From assembly GCF_036711975.1 (NCBI RefSeq), contig NC_091973.1, positions 4,960,001-5,024,000 of the forward strand: a stretch of DNA of 64,000 bases, read 5' to 3'. The notes under the pieces were generated by a model. The model made no database searches, was not told the origin of the DNA, and worked only from the letters and a program-made list of their open reading frames with translations. Origin of the DNA: Onthophagus taurus (lineage: Eukaryota; Arthropoda; Insecta; Coleoptera; Scarabaeidae). Shown piece after piece: positions 13,438 through 64,000 of the stretch; positions within the stretch are counted from its first letter, which is position 1; each line of letters begins with the position of its first letter. The translations under genes and the position numbers were made by a program.

Positions 13438-16400
13438 TAACGATATCATTTTTTTTTATTAACAAAAACATTTTAGAATTCAATGTAGAACAACTTTTGT
13501 GAACGCGCAGTATAAGAAAAGAACTGGGTTTAATAAAACGGTGCTGGTTCAGAGATATAAACAATAAAATTAAAGCGTAAAAAAAAATGTAGGAAAAGTA
13601 GAATAAATAAAAGAAGATGATTAAATTACGATTCTTACGTTTAATTTTCACTGCACTAGAGTAATAATTTTAAACGACTTTTTTGATGCGCACAATACTG
13701 TAGTCGCGTTAAAAGGCGAGTGTACTCGGTCTCTGAACCAGCACCGTTTTATTAAACCCAGTTCTTTTCTTATACTGCGCGTTCATTTTGTATAAAACTT
13801 TTTTTGATCCGATAATTTTTTTAGAATTAAGCCCGATTCACATAAATCGATTTATACATATACACAACCTTAAATATGGGAGATATCAATTTTTTTTATT
13901 AAGAAAAACATTTTAGAATTTAATGTATAACAACTTTTGTATAAAATTTTTTTTGATCCGATAATTTTTTTAGGATTAAGCTCGATTCACATAAATCGAT
14001 TTATACATATACACAACCTTAAATATTGGAGATATCAATTTCTTTTATTAAGAAAATCTTTTTAGAATTGAATGTAGAACAACTTTTGTATAAAGCTTTT
14101 TTTGATCCAATATTTTTTTTAGAATTAAGCCCGATTCACATAAATCGATTTATACATATACACAGCCTTAAATATTGGAGATATCAAATTTTTTCATTAA
14201 GAAAATCTTTTTAGAATTTAATGTAGAACAACTTTTGTATAAAACTTTTTTTGATCCGATAATTTTTTTAGAATTAAGCCCGATTCACATAAATCGATTT
14301 ATACATATACACAACCTTAAATATTGGAGATATCAAATTTTTTCATTAGGAAAATCTTTTTAAAATTTAATTTAGAACAACTTTTGTATAAAACTTTTTT
14401 TGATCCAATAATTTTTTATACTTATGCCGGATTCATTGGTGATATCATTTTCTTTTATTAACAAAATCATTTTAGAATTCAATGTAGAACAACTTTTGTA
14501 TAAAACTTTTTTCGATCCGATAATTTTTTTAGAATTAAGCTCGATTCACATAAATCGATTTATACATATACACAACCTTAAATATTGGTGATATCAATTT
14601 TTTTTATTAACAAAATCATTTTAGAATTTAATGTAGAACAACTTTTGTATAAAACTTTTTTTGATCCGATAATTTTTTTAGAATTAAGCCCGATTCACAT
14701 AAATCGATTTATACATATATACAACCTTACATATGGGAGATATCAATTTTTTTTATTAAGAAAAACATTTTAGAATTTAATGTAGAACAACTTTTGTATA
14801 AAACTTTTTTTGATCCGATAATTTTTTTAGAATTAAGCCCGATTCACATAAATCGATTTATACATATACACAGCCTTAAATATTGGAGATATCAATTTCT
14901 TTTATTAAGAAAATCTTTTTAGAATTGAATGTAGAACAACTTTTGTATAAAACTTTTTTTGATCCAATAATTTTTTTAGAATTAAGCCCGATTCACATAA
15001 ATCGATTTATACATATACACAACCTTAAATATTGGAGATATCAAATTTTTTCATTAGGAAAATCTTTTTAAAATTTAATTTAGAACAACCTTTGTATAAA
15101 ACTTTTTTTGATCCAATAATTTTTTATAATTATGTCGGATTCATTGGTGATATCATTTTTTTTATTAACAAAATCATTTTAAAATTCAATGTAGAACAAC
15201 TTTTGTATAAAACTTTTTTTGATCCGATAATTTTTTTAGAATTAAGCCCGATTCACATAAATCGATTTATACATATACACAACCTTAAATATTGGAGATA
15301 TCAAATTTTTTCATTAAGAAAATCTTTTTAGAATTGAATGTAGAACAACTTTTGTATAAAACTTTTTTTGATCCAATAATTTTTTTAGAATTAAGCTCGA
15401 TTCACATAAATCGATTTATACATATACACAACCTTAAATATTGGAGATATCAATTTTTTTTATTAAGAAAATCATTTTAGAATTCAATGTAGAACAACTT
15501 TTGTATAAAACTTTTTTTGATCCAATAATTTTTTTAGAATTAAGCCCGATTCACATAAATCGATTTATACATATACACAACCTTAAATATTGGAGATATC
15601 AATTTTTTTCATTAGGAAAATCTTTTTAAAATTTTATTTAGAACAACCTTTGTATAAAACTTTTTTTGATCCAATAATTTTTTATAATTATGCCGGATTC
15701 ATTGGTGATATCATTTTTTTTATTAACAAAATCATTTTAAAATTCAATGTAGAACAACTTTTGTATAAAACTTTTTTTGATCCGATAATTTTTTTAGAAT
15801 TAAGCCCGATTCACATAAATCGATTTATACATATACACAACCTTAAATATTGGAGATATCAAATTTTTTCATTAAGAAAATCTTTTTAGAATTGAATGTA
15901 GAACAACTTTTGTATAAAACTTTTTTTGATCCAATAATTTTTTTAGAATTAAGCTCGATTCACATAAATCGATTTATACATATACACAACCTTAAATATT
16001 GGAGATATCAATTTTTTTTATTAAGAAAATCATTTTAGAATTCAATGTAGAACAACTTTTGTATAAAACTTTTTTTGATCCGATAATTTTTTTAGAATTA
16101 AGCCCGATTCACATAAATCGATTTATACATATACACAACCTTAAATATTGGAGATATCAAATTTTTTCATTAAGAAAATCTTTTTAGAATTGAATGTAGA
16201 ACAACTTTTGTATAAAACTTTTTTTGATCCAATAATTTTTTTAGAATTAAGCTCGATTCACATAAATCGATTTATACATATACATAACCTTAAACATTGG
16301 AGATATCAAATTTTTTCATTAGGAAAATCTTTTTAAAATTTAATTTAGAACAACTTTTGTATAAAACTTTTTTTGATCCAATAATTTTTTATAATTATGC

Positions 16401-16905
16401 CGGATTCATTGGTAATATCATTTTTTTTATTAACAAAATCATTTTAGAATTCAATGTAGAACAACTTTTGTATAAAACTTTTTTTGATCCGATAATTTTT
16501 TTAGAATAAAGCTCGATTCACATAAATCGATTATTTATACAACCTAAATACATATACACAACCTTAAATATTGGAGATATCAATTTCTTTTATTAAGAAA
16601 ATCTTTTTAGAATTGAATGTAGAACAACTTTTGTATAAAACTTTTTTTGATCCAATAATTTTTTTAGAATTAAGCCCGATTCACATAAATCGATTTATAC
16701 ATATACACAACCTTAAATATTGGAGATATCAAATTTTTTCATTAAGAAAATCTTTTTAAAATTTAATTTAGAACAACTTTTGTATAAAACTTTTTTTGAT
16801 CCAATAATTTTCTATAATTAAGCCGGATTCAGATAATTCGATTTATACATATATGTTTTAGATATCATTTCTTTTTATTACAAAAATCGTTTTAGAATTC
16901 TAAAT
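13438..16905. repeat. 149-bp satellite array with higher-order organisation
   Basis: About 22 head-to-tail monomers share gatatca, gtagaacaacttttgtataa, tttttttgatcc and a palindromic aaatcgattt. Full monomers are 149 bp (starts at 13877, 14026, 14175, 14585, 14734, 14883, 15143, 15292, 15441 and so on). Shortened 111-bp monomers that lack the aaatcgattt part start at about 14324, 15032, 15590 and 16297. The spacings 15032-15590 (558 = 111 + 3x149) and 15590-16297 (707 = 111 + 4x149) show multi-monomer units. One monomer near 16408 is extended to about 163 bp. Each monomer has a 62-aa frame, but 149 is not a multiple of three, so these are by-products of the repeat. Confidence 0.93.
13501..13785. 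mobile_element. MITE inserted in the satellite
   Basis: The 285-bp insert has inverted ends of about 54 bp beginning GAACGCGCAGTATAAG and is flanked by a direct repeat ttttgt (13495-13500 and 13786-13791). The satellite monomer resumes on the other side where it was broken. It has no coding frame. The superfamily is not clear to me. Confidence 0.75.
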
Positions 16906-17152
16906 TCTTCACATTTAAAAATAATCGATTTAAAATTAATAATTTCCAATAAAATTTGCTGATTAAAGCCGTAAAAATTAATCGCAGGAAATTTTTTGGT
17001 TATTAGAAAGCACTCGCGATAACTTTTATCACACTCCAAAGTTAGTCAAAAAGATTCCAATTAAATTACGATAGTCGAAAAATTCCAAATTCGTGGTTGG
17101 TACAAGTTGGTACGAAGTTGATAACGAGGGAAATTCTTTCGCGAAAAAATCG

Positions 17153-17187
17153 TATAAATACTGCAGAAAAGGGCGTTTAAAATCAGA
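17153..17187 (+). promoter_or_regulatory. TATA box and initiator of the GH1 gene
   Basis: TATAAATA at 17153-17160 is followed by an initiator-like TCAGAA; its A at 17185 is 32 bp after the first T of the TATA box. That would give a short leader of about 20 nt before the ATG at 17206. This is inferred from spacing, not proven. Confidence 0.5.
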
Positions 17188-17205: not shown

Positions 17206-18951
17206 ATGGTTATGAAGAATCATCTTGGTATTATGAGTTATATTCTACTCATGTGGTAAGTTAATCTTTACTTTTGCTTTAATAGTACTTTAATTTTTTT
17301 TGGCATAGTATTTGTATGTCTTATGCTAAACCAAGCATTCCCGATACATTACAATTTGGAGTTGCAACTTCGGCCTATCAAGTTGAAGGAGCATGGAATG
17401 AAGGCGAAAAAGGTGAAAATCAATGGGACAGGCTTACTCACGGGAAACCTCAGAAAATTAAAGACAAATCTAATGCTGATATTACCTGCGATAGTTACCA
17501 TAAATTTATGGATGATGTGCAACTATTGAAAGCAATGAACGTCGATTTTTACAAGTTTTCAATATCTTGGTCGAGAATTTTTCCAACTGGCTACACCAAC
17601 TCGATCAACGCTGATGGAATTCGCTACTATAACGATTTAATTGATGAGCTTATAGTGAATGGTATTAAACCGGTTGCGACAATGTTTCACTGGGACCTTC
17701 CCCAAGCACTACAAGAAAAAGGAGGCTGGATGAACGAACAATTAATTGATGTCTTTGAAACCTATGCTAATTTATTATTTTCAATATACGGAAATAAAGT
17801 CAGAGATTGGATTACTTTTGATGACCCGAACAGATTTTGCTTTGACAACTATTACCAAGAGGTGACCTTCGCGGACGGATTAATACATGAAGGTAATAGC
17901 GGGTACCTTTGTGCACACACCGTCCTAAGATCTCACGGACGAGTTTATAAAATATACAACACCCGCTATAGAACAAGACAGCGAGGTCGCATTGGGATCT
18001 CATTGGGCGCAACGTGGATGGAACGAGGCCTAAAATCTGAATCCGATGTTGAGTTAAGTCGACTAGCAATGGAAATTGAGGTAATAATTTATTCAAATTA
18101 CTATTATTTATTACTAATTTAATTTGTTAGTTGGGATGGTTTGCTCACCCAATCTTTTCAAAAGAAGGTGATTATCCACCAGAACTTGCAAAGCAGTTGG
18201 AAATGTTCGCTCAACGACAACAAATGACTACCTTCAAACTTCCTGATTTTCCAAAAGATGAAGTAGAACTTATAAGAGGGAGCGCTGATTTCATAGGATT
18301 GTCTCACTTTATTTCCAAAATTTGCGACGGTAGTCGTCCTAATATAAATCAGGAAGGTAATCATTTGTTTGGAATTGATTTCTGTACTGAACATAGAACA
18401 CCGCGGCCAACCGGTGTCTCATGGGTTAATCCTGTTCCATGGGGAATTAAAAATTTGTTGAAGTGGGTTAAAGAAGAATATAACAGTCCGGAAATCTTTA
18501 TCACAGCAAATGGATATCCCGATTCTGGGAACGAACACGATTGTCGAAGAGTCCATTACATGAACGTAAGCTCCGTTTATTTCATAACGAGATCATTCTC
18601 ATTATTATTTTATTCAGGTTTACTTGGAACACGTTGCCGCAGCCATAGAAGAGGATGGGTGCAATGTTACTGCTTATACAGTTTGGAGCCTTTTAGACAA
18701 TTTCAATTGGTACAAAGGATACACGTAATAAACTTAATAATTAGATTACTTAAAGATTTATTCGTTATTATTTCAGTGAAAAGTACGGTCTTTACAGAGT
18801 AGATTTTACCAACCCAGAAAGGCCTAGGAAACCTAAATTATCTTCGGTAACATATGCCAATATTATAAAAACTAGAAAAATTGATTGGGGATTCTCTCCG
18901 GAACACTATCGTGAGTGTAGATGGAACAGACTCAACGAGACTGAGGATTAA
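17206..18951 (+). CDS. Family 1 glycoside hydrolase (myrosinase/beta-glucosidase-like), catalytic residues replaced
   Basis: Exons 17206-17255, 17309-18080, 18131-18565, 18618-18724 and 18777-18951 join with GT/AG borders into 512 codons without a break. A secretion signal MVMKNHLGIMSYILLM precedes a full-length GH1 barrel: QFGVATSAYQVEGAWNEG, FSISWSRIFPTG, FHWDLPQAL and WSLLDNFNW are visible. GH1 enzymes cleave beta-glycosides using two glutamates. Here the acid/base motif TFNEP reads TFDDP (residue 189 is Asp), the nucleophile motif TENG reads TANG (residue 400 is Ala), and the sugar-binding Glu of DNFEW is Asn (449). The protein should therefore be secreted but not hydrolytic. Intact splicing and frame argue against a decayed pseudogene. 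Binding or carrier roles are only speculation. Confidence 0.92.
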
Positions 18952-56225: not shown

Positions 56226-57822
56226 CAGGGTGATTCATTAGCCCTATGACAAACTTTGGCAGATGAAAGGTGATGCGATTCTAAGGAAAAAATGTTATAT
56301 GAATATGGGTCCGATTCATTTTGGTTAAAGAGTTACAAGCCTCTGAAAATTGTACACAGTTTAATAGGCAATGACAATGTAACATAAAAAATAAGTTTAA
56401 AAATTACAAAAATTGTTCGAAATGTCCGCCTTCAGCTTGAATGCACGCTTCACATCGACGAAGTAAAGATTTGCAACAATCGCAACAATAATTATGAAAC
56501 ACAAATACAGAGTTGGCTGTGATAACAAAACTGAGTTCTTTATGTCAAACATTTCAATTTACTCTATTCTGTGTGTTTCAAAGTTGAACAACTGAAGAAT
56601 ATGCAGATATTATTTGTGTATACGGGCTTTGTAACGGAAACGCTCAGCAAGCAGCAAGAGAATACCTTCGTAGGTTTCCAAATAGACATCAACCTGCCCA
56701 TACAGTGTTTAGTGCATCATTTCGCAGACTGAGAGAAACAGGTAACCCCGCTCCACTACATTCCGTTCGTCCCCATGATGTGAATGTACAAAATGAAGAA
56801 CGTGTTATTGATTTAGTACTTGACGACCCTTCAATTAGTACTCGGCGTATAGCGAAGATGTTACAAATATCCCAAAGTTTTGTATGGCGTGTATTGAATC
56901 GAGAAATGTTACATCCGTTTCATCGCCAAAATGTTCAAGCATTACATCCTGGAGATACTGAGCAACACTTAGCATTTTGCCACTGGATTATTCAGCAACA
57001 TGCTCAAAATAATAACTTCATTTCCCAAGTTCTGTGGTCTGATGAAGCGTGTTTCACTAGGGACGGCATAAATAATTATCATAACGAACATGTGTGGTCC
57101 TTGCAAAATCCACATGCAATTAGACCAGGAAGATTTCAGCAACGGTTTAGTGTAAACGTTTGGGGTGGCATTTTTAACAATTCTTTGCTACCTGTATGGG
57201 TGATAAATGAACGTTTAAATGCAAATATGTACAGAAATTTCTTTCGACATAACCTTTTCGATTTTATCGACGACGTACCACTTAACATCGTTCAAAATAT
57301 GTGGTATCAGCACGATGATGCACCACCACATCGAGGAAGAGAAGTCATCGCTTGGTTACATGAACATTTTCCAAACAAATGGATTGGCAATGGAGGTCCA
57401 GTAGTCTGGCCACCACGATCCCCAGATCTAAATCCGCTGGATTATTATTTCTGGGGACACATGAAGCAGCTTGTGTACCATGTAGAAATTACTACCCGTC
57501 AGCAACTACTGGACAGAATTCAAGATGCAGCTAATAGCATACGGAATGATCCAAATATCATACGTCGTGTGATAGAATCTTTACTTCGTCGATGTGAGGC
57601 GTGCATTCAAGCTGAAGGCGGACATTTCGAACAATTTTTGTAATTTTTAAACTTATTTTTTATGTTACATTTTCATTTGCCTATTAAACTATGTATAATT
57701 TTCAAAGGCTTGTAACTCTTTAACCAAAATGAATCGGACCCATATTCATATAACATTTTTTCCTTAGAATCGCATCACCTTTCATCTGCCAAAGTTTGTT
57801 ATAGAGCTAATGAATCACCCTG
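56226..57822 (+). mobile_element. DD41D-type mariner-like element with ~244-bp inverted ends
   Basis: The 1597-bp element starts CAGGGTGATTCATTAG and ends with the inverse, flanked by TA on both sides (56224-56225, 57823-57824). The arms (about 56226-56469 and 57579-57822) are nearly identical inverted copies, much longer than usual for mariner. The right arm includes the last 21 codons of the transposase, so the left arm holds an inverted copy of those codons. Confidence 0.9.
56588..57643 (+). CDS. Mariner-type transposase (DD41D), start codon apparently lost
   Basis: Cut-and-paste transposase of the IS630-Tc1-mariner group. The frame is open from the TGA at 56585 to the stop, about 351 codons: EEYADIICVYGLCNGNAQQA at the N-terminus, helix-turn-helix ISTRRIAKMLQISQSFVWRV, first Asp in WSDEACF, second in YQHDDAPPHRG, third in LNPLDYYFWG, with 41 residues between the last two, hence DD41D. 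No ATG occurs in the N-terminal part of the frame; its only possible early start is a GTG at 56705. The protein is therefore probably not made in full, although the catalytic core is intact. The rosa/visitor group is the likely relative. Confidence 0.8.
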   Translation, partial: TTEEYADIICVYGLCNGNAQQAAREYLRRFPNRHQPAHTVFSASFRRLRETGNPAPLHSVRPHDVNVQNEERVIDLVLDDPSISTRRIAKMLQISQSFVWRVLNREMLHPFHRQNVQALHPGDTEQHLAFCHWIIQQHAQNNNFISQVLWSDEACFTRDGINNYHNEHVWSLQNPHAIRPGRFQQRFSVNVWGGIFNNSLLPVWVINERLNANMYRNFFRHNLFDFIDDVPLNIVQNMWYQHDDAPPHRGREVIAWLHEHFPNKWIGNGGPVVWPPRSPDLNPLDYYFWGHMKQLVYHVEITTRQQLLDRIQDAANSIRNDPNIIRRVIESLLRRCEACIQAEGGHFEQFL

Positions 57823-61253: not shown

Positions 61254-64000
61254 CAGTGTTTCTCAAAGTTTTTTCTCTCGCGGCACATTTTCGAAAAAAA
61301 TGTTTATTGAGGGCACACCAACTTTAAAAAAATTACTTTTAACTATAAATAAATAAATAGAAAAGAATTTAAAAGAAAGATTTATTATAATATGAATATA
61401 AGAACAATATAGAAACATTTCCTATAATAAAATAAAAAATGAGTAATAATTAATAGTATAAATACAAAATAAAGAAACCTGTAATAAACATGTATTTTAG
61501 TGAGAAATATGTGATTGACGATGTTTTGTTATCTCTTCTATATTTGGTTTTATTGTTGAGAGAGCAACTCTCAATTCGTCCTCAACATTTTTCAATTGTG
61601 ATCGTTTATTATTTTTTATGGTTGTTAATGTTGAAAATCCTAATTCGCACAAATAGGATGTTGAAAACTGGAAAATACTTATTGCTCTTTTAAATAATTT
61701 TGGATATTCATCATGAATTGATATCCAAAATGTATTGAGTGGAAGTTCTGAATATTTTAATTTTAATGTTCGGTCAGAAGAGAGGGAGATTAGTTCTTCC
61801 TCCTCTTCAAGACAAAGATTGCTGTATGACGTATTACCAGTAAAAGGGTTTCGAATCCAGTCATGTTTTTCTATATGGATGGATGGAAAATATTTGGCAA
61901 CTGCTTGCTGAAGAGTGTCTAAATGACTTTTCACCAAGGAATTTCCGTCAGGAATTTTGGCAAACATCTCTAAATTGTTCTCGCCGACTTTTTTTGACCA
62001 TAAACATAACTTATTACTAAATGCAGTTAATTTGTCCGTTGATGTTAAAATATTTTCGTGTCGTCCTTGCAAACTTGAATTTAAATGGTTAAGATGTGAA
62101 AAGGTATGTTCTAGGTAAGCCAGCTTTGCACACCACAATTCATTGCTCAAACAGTCATAAAATTGTTGTGTTTTCAAAATTCTTCTTTTCTCCTTTTCTC
62201 CCATAGTCGTTTCTTCTTTAAAGAATACACAAAGTTCTTCTCTTAACTCATACGCACGAGCTAAAACTCGTCCTCTAGAAAGCCATCGAACTTCACTATG
62301 CAATAATAAGCAATTGTAATTAGCTTCCATGCTGTCACATAATTCTTTGAATAATCGTGATTTTAATGGTCTGCTTTTAATATAATTGACTATTTTTATC
62401 ACATCTTCCAAAACAGATATTAGTTCCGTAGGGAGAGTTTTGGCTACTAAAGCTTCTCGATGTATAATATGAGTAGTAATAATATCAGCATTTTTTTGTT
62501 TCGCGTACGTCCAGAACCCTTTCTCATTACCGACCATTGCAGGAGCACCGTCTGTACAAATTCCTGTACAAAAGTTCCAGGAGAGATTGGAATTTTTGAA
62601 AAAATTGTCGACGCAATCAAATATTTCTTTACCCGTTGTCCTCCCCGACAATTCTTGACAAAATAAAAATTGATTTATAATTGAATCCCCGTTAATTAAG
62701 CGTACAAATCCCATTAATTGTGCTTTTCCGCTAATGTCTGTTGATTCATCTATTTGTAGGGCAAATATTTTATTGTTAAGTTTTTGGTGAACATTTTTTG
62801 CTATGTTTTCCGACATATCAGCAATTCGTCGACTAATGGTGTCGTTGGAGAGAGGGATTTTGTTTATTTCAGTTTCTGCTTCTTTCCCTAACATACATTT
62901 CACCATTATTCGACAAGCAGGGCCAATTAACGTTTCCCCAATTGAATGAGGTTTCATCTTCTGTGCAATAAGTTCGGCTATCTCGTAAGACGCAATTTGT
63001 GCTTTATCTGACACCCTTACTGCTTTTTCGAATTTTTGGGATTGTTTGGCACTATTAGTTATTAATCGTTCAAAATAATTTTTGCATTTGGACACCAAAC
63101 TTGGGTGAACTTTTTCCAAATGCCGTTTTAGTTTGCTAGGAACCATTGCTCCGTTTGTTTTTGTATTCCCACAAACAACACATAAAGGCAATGGGGTATC
63201 TACGCTTCCTGTCCATGTAAAACCATAATTAAGGTAATCTTCACTATACTTTCTTGAATTAATTTTCGCCTTTTTTGCCGGAGGTTCATCCATGCTGGAA
63301 CTACTACTAAAATTAGCCTCATCAGCAGCTGTAGTGGATGCACTATTAACAGTTAAAAATTTTCTTAAATCCATTTTTGATAAGCTAAAAAGAATATGTT
63401 AAAATTTATTAATTCTAATTATTATTATTTCATTAATTTTAAAATTTTATTATAAATTTTTGCTTATTGACTATTAGTACAAGATTCCGATATAAATCCG
63501 ATACCCCTCATCTGTTTTCGTGATAAAATATATATATTTTTTTACAATAAAATGTATAAATAAAGGAAACCTAGACTATATTAATTTTTTAAGTAAATTG
63601 GATAATTACATTATTTGTCAAAAATCTGCAAACTCTATAACAGTTCTAAGTTATAAAACATGTAAATTTCGTTAAGATCGCATTTATGTTATTAATATAA
63701 ACAATTAAGTAAATAAATAATCTTACCTTATTTTTCCTGAGAAATCCTAATTATTCAATAAATAGCACGAAAACACAATAACAATTGAATAACATAAAGA
63801 AAAGCCCAAAACGTTTTACAGTCCTAGAGGACCTAACCTAGAGAGGATATACAGTATTTTCGGGGAATAACCTAATACGCTTTACCGATGGTTTTTCGGA
63901 AACTTCCTCTTTAGTCAAGGCTTTACGAGAGTACGGCGCACAGTAGAAATTTACTAGTACTAGTACTTGCTCTTTTAATCTGCTCCGTATGTTATAAATC
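61254..64000 (-). mobile_element. hAT element, left end to window edge
   Basis: The terminal inverted repeat begins CAGTGTTTCTCAAAGTTTTT and is followed by gcggcacattttcg, the usual form for hAT elements of the Charlie/ZBED type. The preceding eight bases CTCTATAT (61246-61253) would be the target copy; the matching right end is not in the window. The non-coding part at 63375-64000 shows no other feature. Confidence 0.75.
61497..63374 (-). CDS. hAT transposase with BED-type zinc finger (ZBED5/GTF2IRD2-like), intact
   Basis: An uninterrupted 625-aa frame with ATG start. Layout: a serine-rich N-terminus with a KKAK basic signal, a BED-like zinc finger (Cys65, Cys68, His85, His90 in CVVCGNTK...RHLEKVH), the catalytic core with ALQIDESTDISG (Asp209) and CTDGAPAMVGNEKG (Asp275), the helical insertion, and the C-terminal hATC dimerisation region with YLCELGFSTLTTIKNN (Glu577). 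All three catalytic acidic residues are present. It lies behind a hAT terminal repeat, so it is an element gene and not a domesticated one, unless the right end is missing. Confidence 0.92.
   Translation of the reverse strand: MDLRKFLTVNSASTTAADEANFSSSSSMDEPPAKKAKINSRKYSEDYLNYGFTWTGSVDTPLPLCVVCGNTKTNGAMVPSKLKRHLEKVHPSLVSKCKNYFERLITNSAKQSQKFEKAVRVSDKAQIASYEIAELIAQKMKPHSIGETLIGPACRIMVKCMLGKEAETEINKIPLSNDTISRRIADMSENIAKNVHQKLNNKIFALQIDESTDISGKAQLMGFVRLINGDSIINQFLFCQELSGRTTGKEIFDCVDNFFKNSNLSWNFCTGICTDGAPAMVGNEKGFWTYAKQKNADIITTHIIHREALVAKTLPTELISVLEDVIKIVNYIKSRPLKSRLFKELCDSMEANYNCLLLHSEVRWLSRGRVLARAYELREELCVFFKEETTMGEKEKRRILKTQQFYDCLSNELWCAKLAYLEHTFSHLNHLNSSLQGRHENILTSTDKLTAFSNKLCLWSKKVGENNLEMFAKIPDGNSLVKSHLDTLQQAVAKYFPSIHIEKHDWIRNPFTGNTSYSNLCLEEEEELISLSSDRTLKLKYSELPLNTFWISIHDEYPKLFKRAISIFQFSTSYLCELGFSTLTTIKNNKRSQLKNVEDELRVALSTIKPNIEEITKHRQSHISH

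What the first reader, a model, noticed from the sequence alone, without database searches (positions are those of the whole stretch)
17206..18951. Full-length secreted GH1 protein with both catalytic glutamates replaced
The five-exon frame is intact over 512 codons and keeps the fold motifs. But the acid/base motif reads DDP, the nucleophile motif reads TANG, and the substrate-binding Glu of DNFEW is Asn. In GH1 both glutamates are needed for retaining hydrolysis. Three active-site losses with no frame damage suggest a pseudoenzyme under selection, perhaps a glycoside or glucosinolate binder. The core promoter and splice sites also look functional.
Basis: partly seen in the sequence, partly recalled or inferred. 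Interest (0 to 1): 0.7.

Follow-up and report, generated by a model that had tools for sequence, protein, structure and literature searches.

The report
Five dead-site β-glucosidase relatives
This gene, probably of an insect, encodes a secreted-looking β-glucosidase relative that has lost its catalytic residues, and it is one of five such genes in its genome that selection has kept intact, so it probably does a non-enzymatic job such as binding something.

Summary
Window 17206-18951 encodes an intact five-exon, 512-aa GH1 protein with Asp189 for the acid/base Glu, Ala400 for the nucleophile Glu and Asn449 for the sugar-binding Glu. It is not alone. Of 15 GH1 gene models built from the same 290.8-Mb genome, five (two on C8, three on C5) share these losses and form one clade with 100/100 support; the other ten keep the nucleophile. 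The four relatives are 57-64% identical to the window protein and fourfold sites are far diverged, so the loss is old. Codon models give dN/dS 0.12 within the clade and 0.15 on the window branch; both reject 1. Two broken copies on C1 show about six-fold higher dN/dS over 171 codons, though still below 1. All five share a TATA/Inr-like core promoter whose 22-position motif was found nowhere else in the genome. This is an expanded pseudoenzyme lineage under selection. The best mechanism, inferred, is non-catalytic binding of a ligand or protein at a remodelled pocket mouth. Expression, ligand, insect order and occurrence in other species were not established.

The parts
17147..17168 (+). core promoter motif AAATCGTATAAATA..G.A.AA with a TATA box at 17153-17160
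   Evidence: aligned in all five clade genes; five exact matches in 290.8 Mb, one at each gene
17183..17187 (+). initiator-like TCAGA; its A (17185) lies 32 bases from the first T of the TATA box
   Evidence: sequence, alignment of five promoters; that it is the start site is inferred
17206..17255 (+). exon 1: start codon and signal-peptide-like segment (by eye)
   Evidence: phase-2 intron at codon 17 in all five clade genes
17309..18080 (+). exon 2: N-terminal part of the GH1 barrel
17814..17828 (+). TFDDP, degenerate acid/base motif (Asn188Asp, Glu189Asp)
18131..18565 (+). exon 3
18503..18514 (+). TANG, degenerate nucleophile motif (Glu400Ala)
18618..18724 (+). exon 4
18696..18710 (+). DNFNW, sugar-binding Glu449 replaced by Asn (Asp or Gln in the four relatives)
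18777..18951 (+). exon 5 and stop codon
19009..19014 (+). ATTAAA polyadenylation-like signal

Best explanation
The gene is one of five paralogous, secreted-looking, catalytically dead GH1 proteins. One ancestral duplicate of a β-glucosidase lost its nucleophile (Glu to Ala) and its acid/base (Glu to Asp), and had its sugar-binding Glu449 replaced, before the five copies split. Shown from sequence: intact genes, one clade, conserved fold and cysteines, conserved promoter, purifying selection. Inferred: the protein is made and secreted, cannot carry out retaining hydrolysis, and works by binding. The kept aromatic and Gln/His floor of the pocket and the residues fixed around its mouth hold a ligand or a partner protein (for example a plant glycoside, or an inhibitor that would otherwise hit the active paralogues) without cleaving it, comparable to what has been proposed for dead GH28 proteins of leaf beetles and is known of dead GH16 β-glucan recognition proteins. 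My split: non-catalytic and selected 0.9; works through the pocket mouth 0.5; decoy or sequestering role in gut or haemolymph 0.3.
For: Active-site table for 15 genome GH1 models plus a termite enzyme: Ala400 in 5 of 5 clade genes, Glu in 10 of 10 others; Asp189 in 5 of 5, Glu in 8 of 10 others; Glu449 replaced in 5 of 5, kept in 10 of 10. Clade support 100/100. dN/dS 0.12 in the crown (2dlnL 664 against 1), 0.148 on the window tip (2dlnL 21; p 4.5e-6); 14.6 and 13.3 for the window tip on two other topologies. Broken C1 copies: tip omega 0.37 against 0.063-0.065 for the intact clade genes over the same 171 codons. Of columns invariant in the ten other genes, 61 are kept in all five and 7 are lost in all five, among them Asn188, Glu400 and Glu449. 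18 residues are fixed in the five and absent from the ten, several of them (195, 196, 213, 215, 337, 451) shortly after barrel strands 4, 6 and 8 (placement recalled from GH1 topology). Core promoter kept. Precedents: silencing dead GH28 genes lowers beetle performance (PMC6549527, abstract and Discussion); a dead GH28 interacts with plant PGIP-like proteins (PMC8213348, abstract).
Against: No transcript, protein or ligand data. Exons 3-5 are looser in the clade than in the active paralogues (omega 0.185 and 0.231 against 0.056 and 0.038); that part holds positions 400 and 449, so conservation does not single out the pocket. Asn332 and Tyr334 of the sugar site vary within the clade, and 449 is Asn, Asp or Gln. 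A further 13 columns invariant in the ten others are lost in some of the five. The window branch does not differ significantly from the one-ratio omega (p 0.09). Several branches are long, so the stem omega (0.35 overall; 0.007 to 7.4 by region) is not usable. The broken-copy yardstick gave 0.37, not 1, and 1 was rejected for it too (p 3e-4).
Confidence: 0.6

Rival explanations
1. Partner or chaperone: the dead protein pairs with active GH1 paralogues and helps their folding, stability or regulation, as suggested for the dead first GH1 domain of the sea hare β-glucosidase akuBGL.
For: akuBGL GH1D1 has Asp for the acid/base Glu, showed no activity on the substrate tried, and was proposed as a chaperone (PMC10619976, passages). 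The PDB entry with the highest summed score, 8in1, is a 994-aa two-domain enzyme that I take to be akuBGL by length and motifs; the best single stretch is the termite enzyme 3ai0. The N-terminal part of the clade is about as constrained as the active enzymes.
Against: The clade genes lie on C8 and C5 while 9 of the 10 other models lie on C7 and one on C3. The promoter motif was found at no other place in the genome, nor its core in the stretches held around the other models, so shared regulation is not suggested. Separate chain, not a fused domain.
Confidence: 0.15
2. Signalling or recognition protein: a soluble extracellular receptor, co-receptor or pattern-recognition factor, comparable to Klotho (GH1), β-glucan recognition proteins (GH16) or IDGFs (GH18).
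For: β-Klotho and Klotho are among the top PDB rows (summed over three stretches). Insect βGRP/GNBP are glucanase homologues without catalysis (PMC6403176, passages). Signal-peptide-like N-termini and no obvious C-terminal anchor in the five models (by eye).
Against: Five copies with loose exons 3-5 look more like variable targets than a conserved hormone co-receptor (judgement). One GH1 match in 512 aa, no doubled domain.
Confidence: 0.15
3. Residual or altered catalysis: Asp189 and/or the acid at 188 supports hydrolysis or glycosyl transfer without an enzymatic nucleophile, for example with an external nucleophile.
For: Position 188 is Asp in four and Glu in one, 189 is Asp in 5 of 5. Glu-to-Ala nucleophile mutants of GH1 enzymes act as glycosynthases with activated donors (recalled). 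Ascorbate replaces the catalytic base in plant myrosinase (title in the reference list of PMC9632345).
Against: Plant myrosinases keep the nucleophile (recalled); here it is Ala in 5 of 5. Glu449 is replaced too. No natural glycosyl-fluoride-like donor is known to me.
Confidence: 0.06
4. Dead duplicates on the way to pseudogenes, still intact by chance.
For: Two broken relatives and three repeat-borne fragment loci exist in the genome, so some copies do decay.
Against: Five intact frames although fourfold-site identity between them is 0.38-0.59; crown omega 0.12; promoter kept.
Confidence: 0.04

Closest known systems
GH1 β-glucosidases and myrosinases of insects (termite β-glucosidase 3ai0, aphid thioglucosidase 1wcg; species recalled)
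   Same: Fold family and length; 43.9% identity to 3ai0 over 467 positions; strong PDB matches
   Different: No nucleophile, Asp for the acid/base, sugar-binding Glu replaced
Klotho / β-Klotho
   Same: GH1-fold proteins with degenerate active sites (recalled); PDB hits
   Different: Klothos are vertebrate, doubled and membrane-anchored (recalled); this is a single GH1 domain
akuBGL GH1D1 and other dead GH1 domains of molluscs
   Same: Inactive GH1 domain with Asp for the acid/base Glu (PMC10619976 passages)
   Different: Domain fused to an active one, and akuBGL GH1D1 keeps the nucleophile; here separate genes without it
GH28 pseudoenzymes of leaf beetles (Phaedon)
   Same: Catalytically dead copies within an expanded digestive glycosidase family
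   Different: Different fold and family; GH48, a Phytophaga beetle marker (PMC3981738 passages), was not found here, in a search whose controls were also empty
β-glucan recognition proteins (GH16)
   Same: Insect glycosidase relatives lacking the catalytic Glu, used for binding (PMC6403176 passages)
   Different: Different family; no immune role shown here

Membership tests
Glycoside hydrolase family 1 (sequence family) | Match to the GH1 profile over the whole barrel | tested here: met
   PF00232 441 bits, residues 26-489, profile 4-452 of 453
GH1 retaining β-glycosidase (enzyme) | Nucleophile Glu in I/V-T-E-N-G | tested here: not met
   Ala400
GH1 retaining β-glycosidase (enzyme) | Acid/base Glu in N-E-P | tested here: not met
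   Asp189
GH1 retaining β-glycosidase (enzyme) | Hydrolytic activity | not testable with these tools
   needs protein
Plant-type myrosinase | Nucleophile kept with Gln at the acid/base (recalled) | tested here: not met
   Ala400 and Asp189
Insect-type myrosinase | Both catalytic Glu present | tested here: not met
   criterion from PMC9632345 passages
Klotho | Two GH1-like domains and a membrane anchor (recalled) | tested here: not met
   one GH1 match in 512 aa; C-terminus RWNRLNETED is not hydrophobic (by eye)
Pseudoenzyme (catalytically dead, selected) | Catalytic residues lost | tested here: met
Pseudoenzyme (catalytically dead, selected) | Purifying selection after the loss | tested here: met
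   crown omega 0.12, 2dlnL 664 against 1
Pseudoenzyme (catalytically dead, selected) | Expressed, with a biological effect | not testable with these tools
   no RNA or protein data

The most novel reading that the evidence does not exclude
An insect lineage turned a digestive β-glucosidase into a small family of soluble non-catalytic receptors or recognition proteins with their own shared promoter: a GH1 counterpart, independent of vertebrate Klotho, of the GH16 recognition proteins and GH18 growth factors.
Probability: 0.15. Interest if true: 0.75.

Novelty: new variant of a known kind. Interest (0 to 1): 0.52.

Why it matters
[quoted passage not shown] A five-gene clade kept under selection without the nucleophile shows that some GH1 genes do something else, and it gives a defined set of natural Glu-to-Ala GH1 proteins for binding assays. 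The listings that I saw of my paper searches named no insect GH1 pseudoenzyme clade; they cover an open-licence library, several were cut lists, and supplements such as the GH1 alignment of PMC3981738 were not seen. Since the clade looks old, homologues very likely sit in public protein databases under enzyme names (inference).

Tried and rejected
Organism: that it is an insect is not shown by name; the mitochondrial copy has, by eye, the ancestral insect gene order. Telomere repeats gave no answer: TTAGG 3 overlapping matches inside C3, with 11 matches of the backward control; TCAGG 0. GH48 gave no match, but its control rang nowhere. Searches with PF06286, PF00104 and PF00295 did not complete. 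Order left open.

Stem-branch omega was estimated overall and by region, is unstable, and was not used. Relationships within the clade are unresolved: the protein tree puts C8_5147 outside with 65.7/69 support, while the codon likelihood is higher with the two C8 genes as sisters (-9990.89 against -9996.14). The clade's place among the other GH1 genes is weakly supported (91.2/76). PMC8504966 was looked at (passages) and had nothing on dead GH1 copies in what I saw.

Rows dropped: C1_36389, C1_36390 and the fragment model C7_23781 were left out of the tree, residue table and main codon set; the two C1 fragments were used only. The codon set used 9 of 15 models (five clade genes and the four C7_237xx genes), 450 gap-free codons from residue 50 on. 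Counts of GH1 genes are lower bounds, as the search tool states. Several of the ten other models are imperfect: first exons of C7_23767 and C7_23777 are wrong (column 41 reads G and S), C7_11236 starts at query residue 26, C7_23799 has a frameshift in its first exon, and C7_8873 holds two stops in what looks like unspliced intron. Asp in the termite 3ai0 row is, as I recall, an engineered change and was not counted as natural. The set of active-site positions was chosen after seeing the data. L030 and L031 were fetched and not analysed.

Full report
What was checked. The window is bases 4960001-5024000 of contig C8 in a 290.8-Mb, 33-contig genome. The gene at 17206-18951 splices through four short GT-AG introns into 512 codons and a stop. 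It matches GH1 over the whole barrel (441 bits).

It is one of five. A PF00232 search of the genome gave 52 exon-level matches and a search with the window protein 61. A spliced-alignment program written here gave 14 further gene models and three fragments out of 17 regions tried. Four models share the degenerate site: C8:5146882-5148638, C5:5377445-5379183 (minus strand), C5:5634596-5636340 and C5:5839488-5841210; these ends are those of the alignment, and an in-frame stop follows 2 to 8 codons later. They are 56.7-63.7% identical to the window protein; the other ten are 38.6-48.1%. In the five, position 400 is Ala in 5 of 5, 189 is Asp in 5 of 5, 188 is Asp in four and Glu in one, and 449 is Asn, Asp, Gln, Gln, Gln. 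In the other ten, 400 is Glu in 10 of 10, 449 is Glu in 10 of 10, 188 is Asn in 10 of 10, and 189 is Glu in 8 of 10 (Asp in C7_8869 and C7_11236). The five form one clade with SH-aLRT/bootstrap 100/100. They share a phase-2 intron at codon 17 and lack the phase-1 intron at codon 49 or 50 that 9 of the 10 other models have.

Selection. On 450 codons of nine genes, the one-ratio omega is 0.097. With the clade crown apart from everything else the values are 0.12 for the crown and 0.059 for the rest; setting the crown to 1 costs 2dlnL 664. The window branch alone is 0.148, not significantly above the rest (p 0.09), and setting it to 1 costs 2dlnL 21, or 14.6 and 13.3 on two other topologies. Fitted apart, the five give 0.126 and the four active genes 0.047. 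So constraint is about half as tight as in the active paralogues, and far from neutral. By region, the N-terminal parts match the active genes (0.048 against 0.037; 0.104 against 0.106), while exon 3 (0.185 against 0.056) and exons 4-5 (0.231 against 0.038) are looser. As a yardstick, two broken relatives on C1 give a tip omega of 0.37 against 0.063-0.065 for the intact clade genes over the same 171 codons, a clear difference (p 5e-9 and 9e-9 on two placements); but 1 was rejected for them too (p 3e-4), so the yardstick is not a fully neutral one. The codon program was written here and is not a published package.

Age and promoter. Fourfold sites, counted where the first two codon bases agree, are 39-48% identical between the window gene and its four relatives and 38-59% over all ten pairs. 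The 85 bases before the start codon are 60-89% identical over the ten pairs (60-63% for the window gene) while the 75 bases further up are 24-60% (24-50% for the window gene). The near part holds a TATA box and an initiator-like TCAG 32-33 bases downstream (spacing counted by eye). The motif AAATCGTATAAATANNGNANAA, derived from these five genes, has five exact matches in the genome, one per gene, and 0 for the backward control; the core TCGTATAAATA was not found in the stretches held around the other models. That no sixth match exists is informative; the five are by construction.

What was lost and kept. Of columns invariant in the ten other genes (at least nine present), 61 are kept in all five clade members, 13 are lost in some, and 7 are lost in all five: 94, 177, 182, 188, 206, 400 and 449. 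Three of the 7 are active-site positions. With the termite row added, 5 active-site columns among 77 invariant ones give a chance of 0.004, but the list of active-site positions is recalled and was chosen after seeing the data. Gln41, His144, Trp442 and Trp450 are kept in 5 of 5. Cysteines 77, 194, 218, 339, 359, 412 and 502 are kept in 5 of 5 and 434 in 4 of 5. Eighteen residues are fixed in the five and absent from the ten.

Reading. The nucleophile and acid/base were replaced before the five copies split (simplest reading of the tree), the fold was kept, and the genes were retained with their own promoter type. That is a pseudoenzyme lineage. Without Glu400 the usual covalent glycosyl intermediate cannot form, so retaining hydrolysis should be absent (established GH1 mechanism). 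What it does instead is inferred: binding without cleavage, most likely of a ligand or protein at the remodelled pocket mouth. Published parallels are dead GH28 proteins in leaf beetles, whose silencing costs performance (PMC6549527, abstract and Discussion; its one mention of GH1 is a figure legend) and one of which interacts with plant PGIP-like proteins (PMC8213348, abstract); GH16 recognition proteins (PMC6403176, passages); and a dead GH1 domain in a sea hare enzyme (PMC10619976, passages). What I say of IDGFs (GH18) and of Klotho is recalled, apart from search listings and the Klotho PDB matches.

Limits. No transcript, protein or ligand evidence; insect order unknown; no other insect genome was searched. 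The finding rises from one odd gene to a selected five-gene clade, but its function remains a hypothesis.

Noticed in passing
L027:1433-2740, L028:800-2107, L029:1290-2476 (C15 near 5,408 kb; C14 near 283 kb; C3 near 11,593 kb): A repeat of about 1.2-1.3 kb, 90-97% identical between three copies, carries two inverted fragments of a dead-clade GH1 exon 2 (residues about 202-274): a captured gene piece that might form a hairpin RNA resembling these genes (the hairpin role is speculation).
   Followed up: partly
C1:36389074-36389816 (+) and C1:36390071-36390909 (-): Two broken, inverted copies of the dead GH1 lineage with stops and frameshifts; one still reads FDDP.
   Followed up: yes
L032 from 4350 to L033 about 8923 (C1:21.443-21.458 Mb): A near-complete mitochondrial genome copy inside a 44-Mb contig, in ancestral insect gene order, with nad2 split by a segment carrying a reverse-transcriptase-like frame: probably a nuclear mitochondrial insertion (gene names by eye).
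   Followed up: partly
window 13786-16853: A tandem array with a 149-base period and 111/112-base variants ends about 350 bases upstream of the gene.
   Followed up: no
C7:8868228-8872916 and C7:11235656-11237750: Two other GH1 models have Asp at the acid/base position but keep the nucleophile, so Glu-to-Asp there appears more than once in this genome.
   Followed up: no
window 56588-57643 (+) and 61497-63398 (-): Open frames of 351 and 633 aa that look like a mariner-type and a hAT-type transposase (family names by eye, not searched).
   Followed up: no
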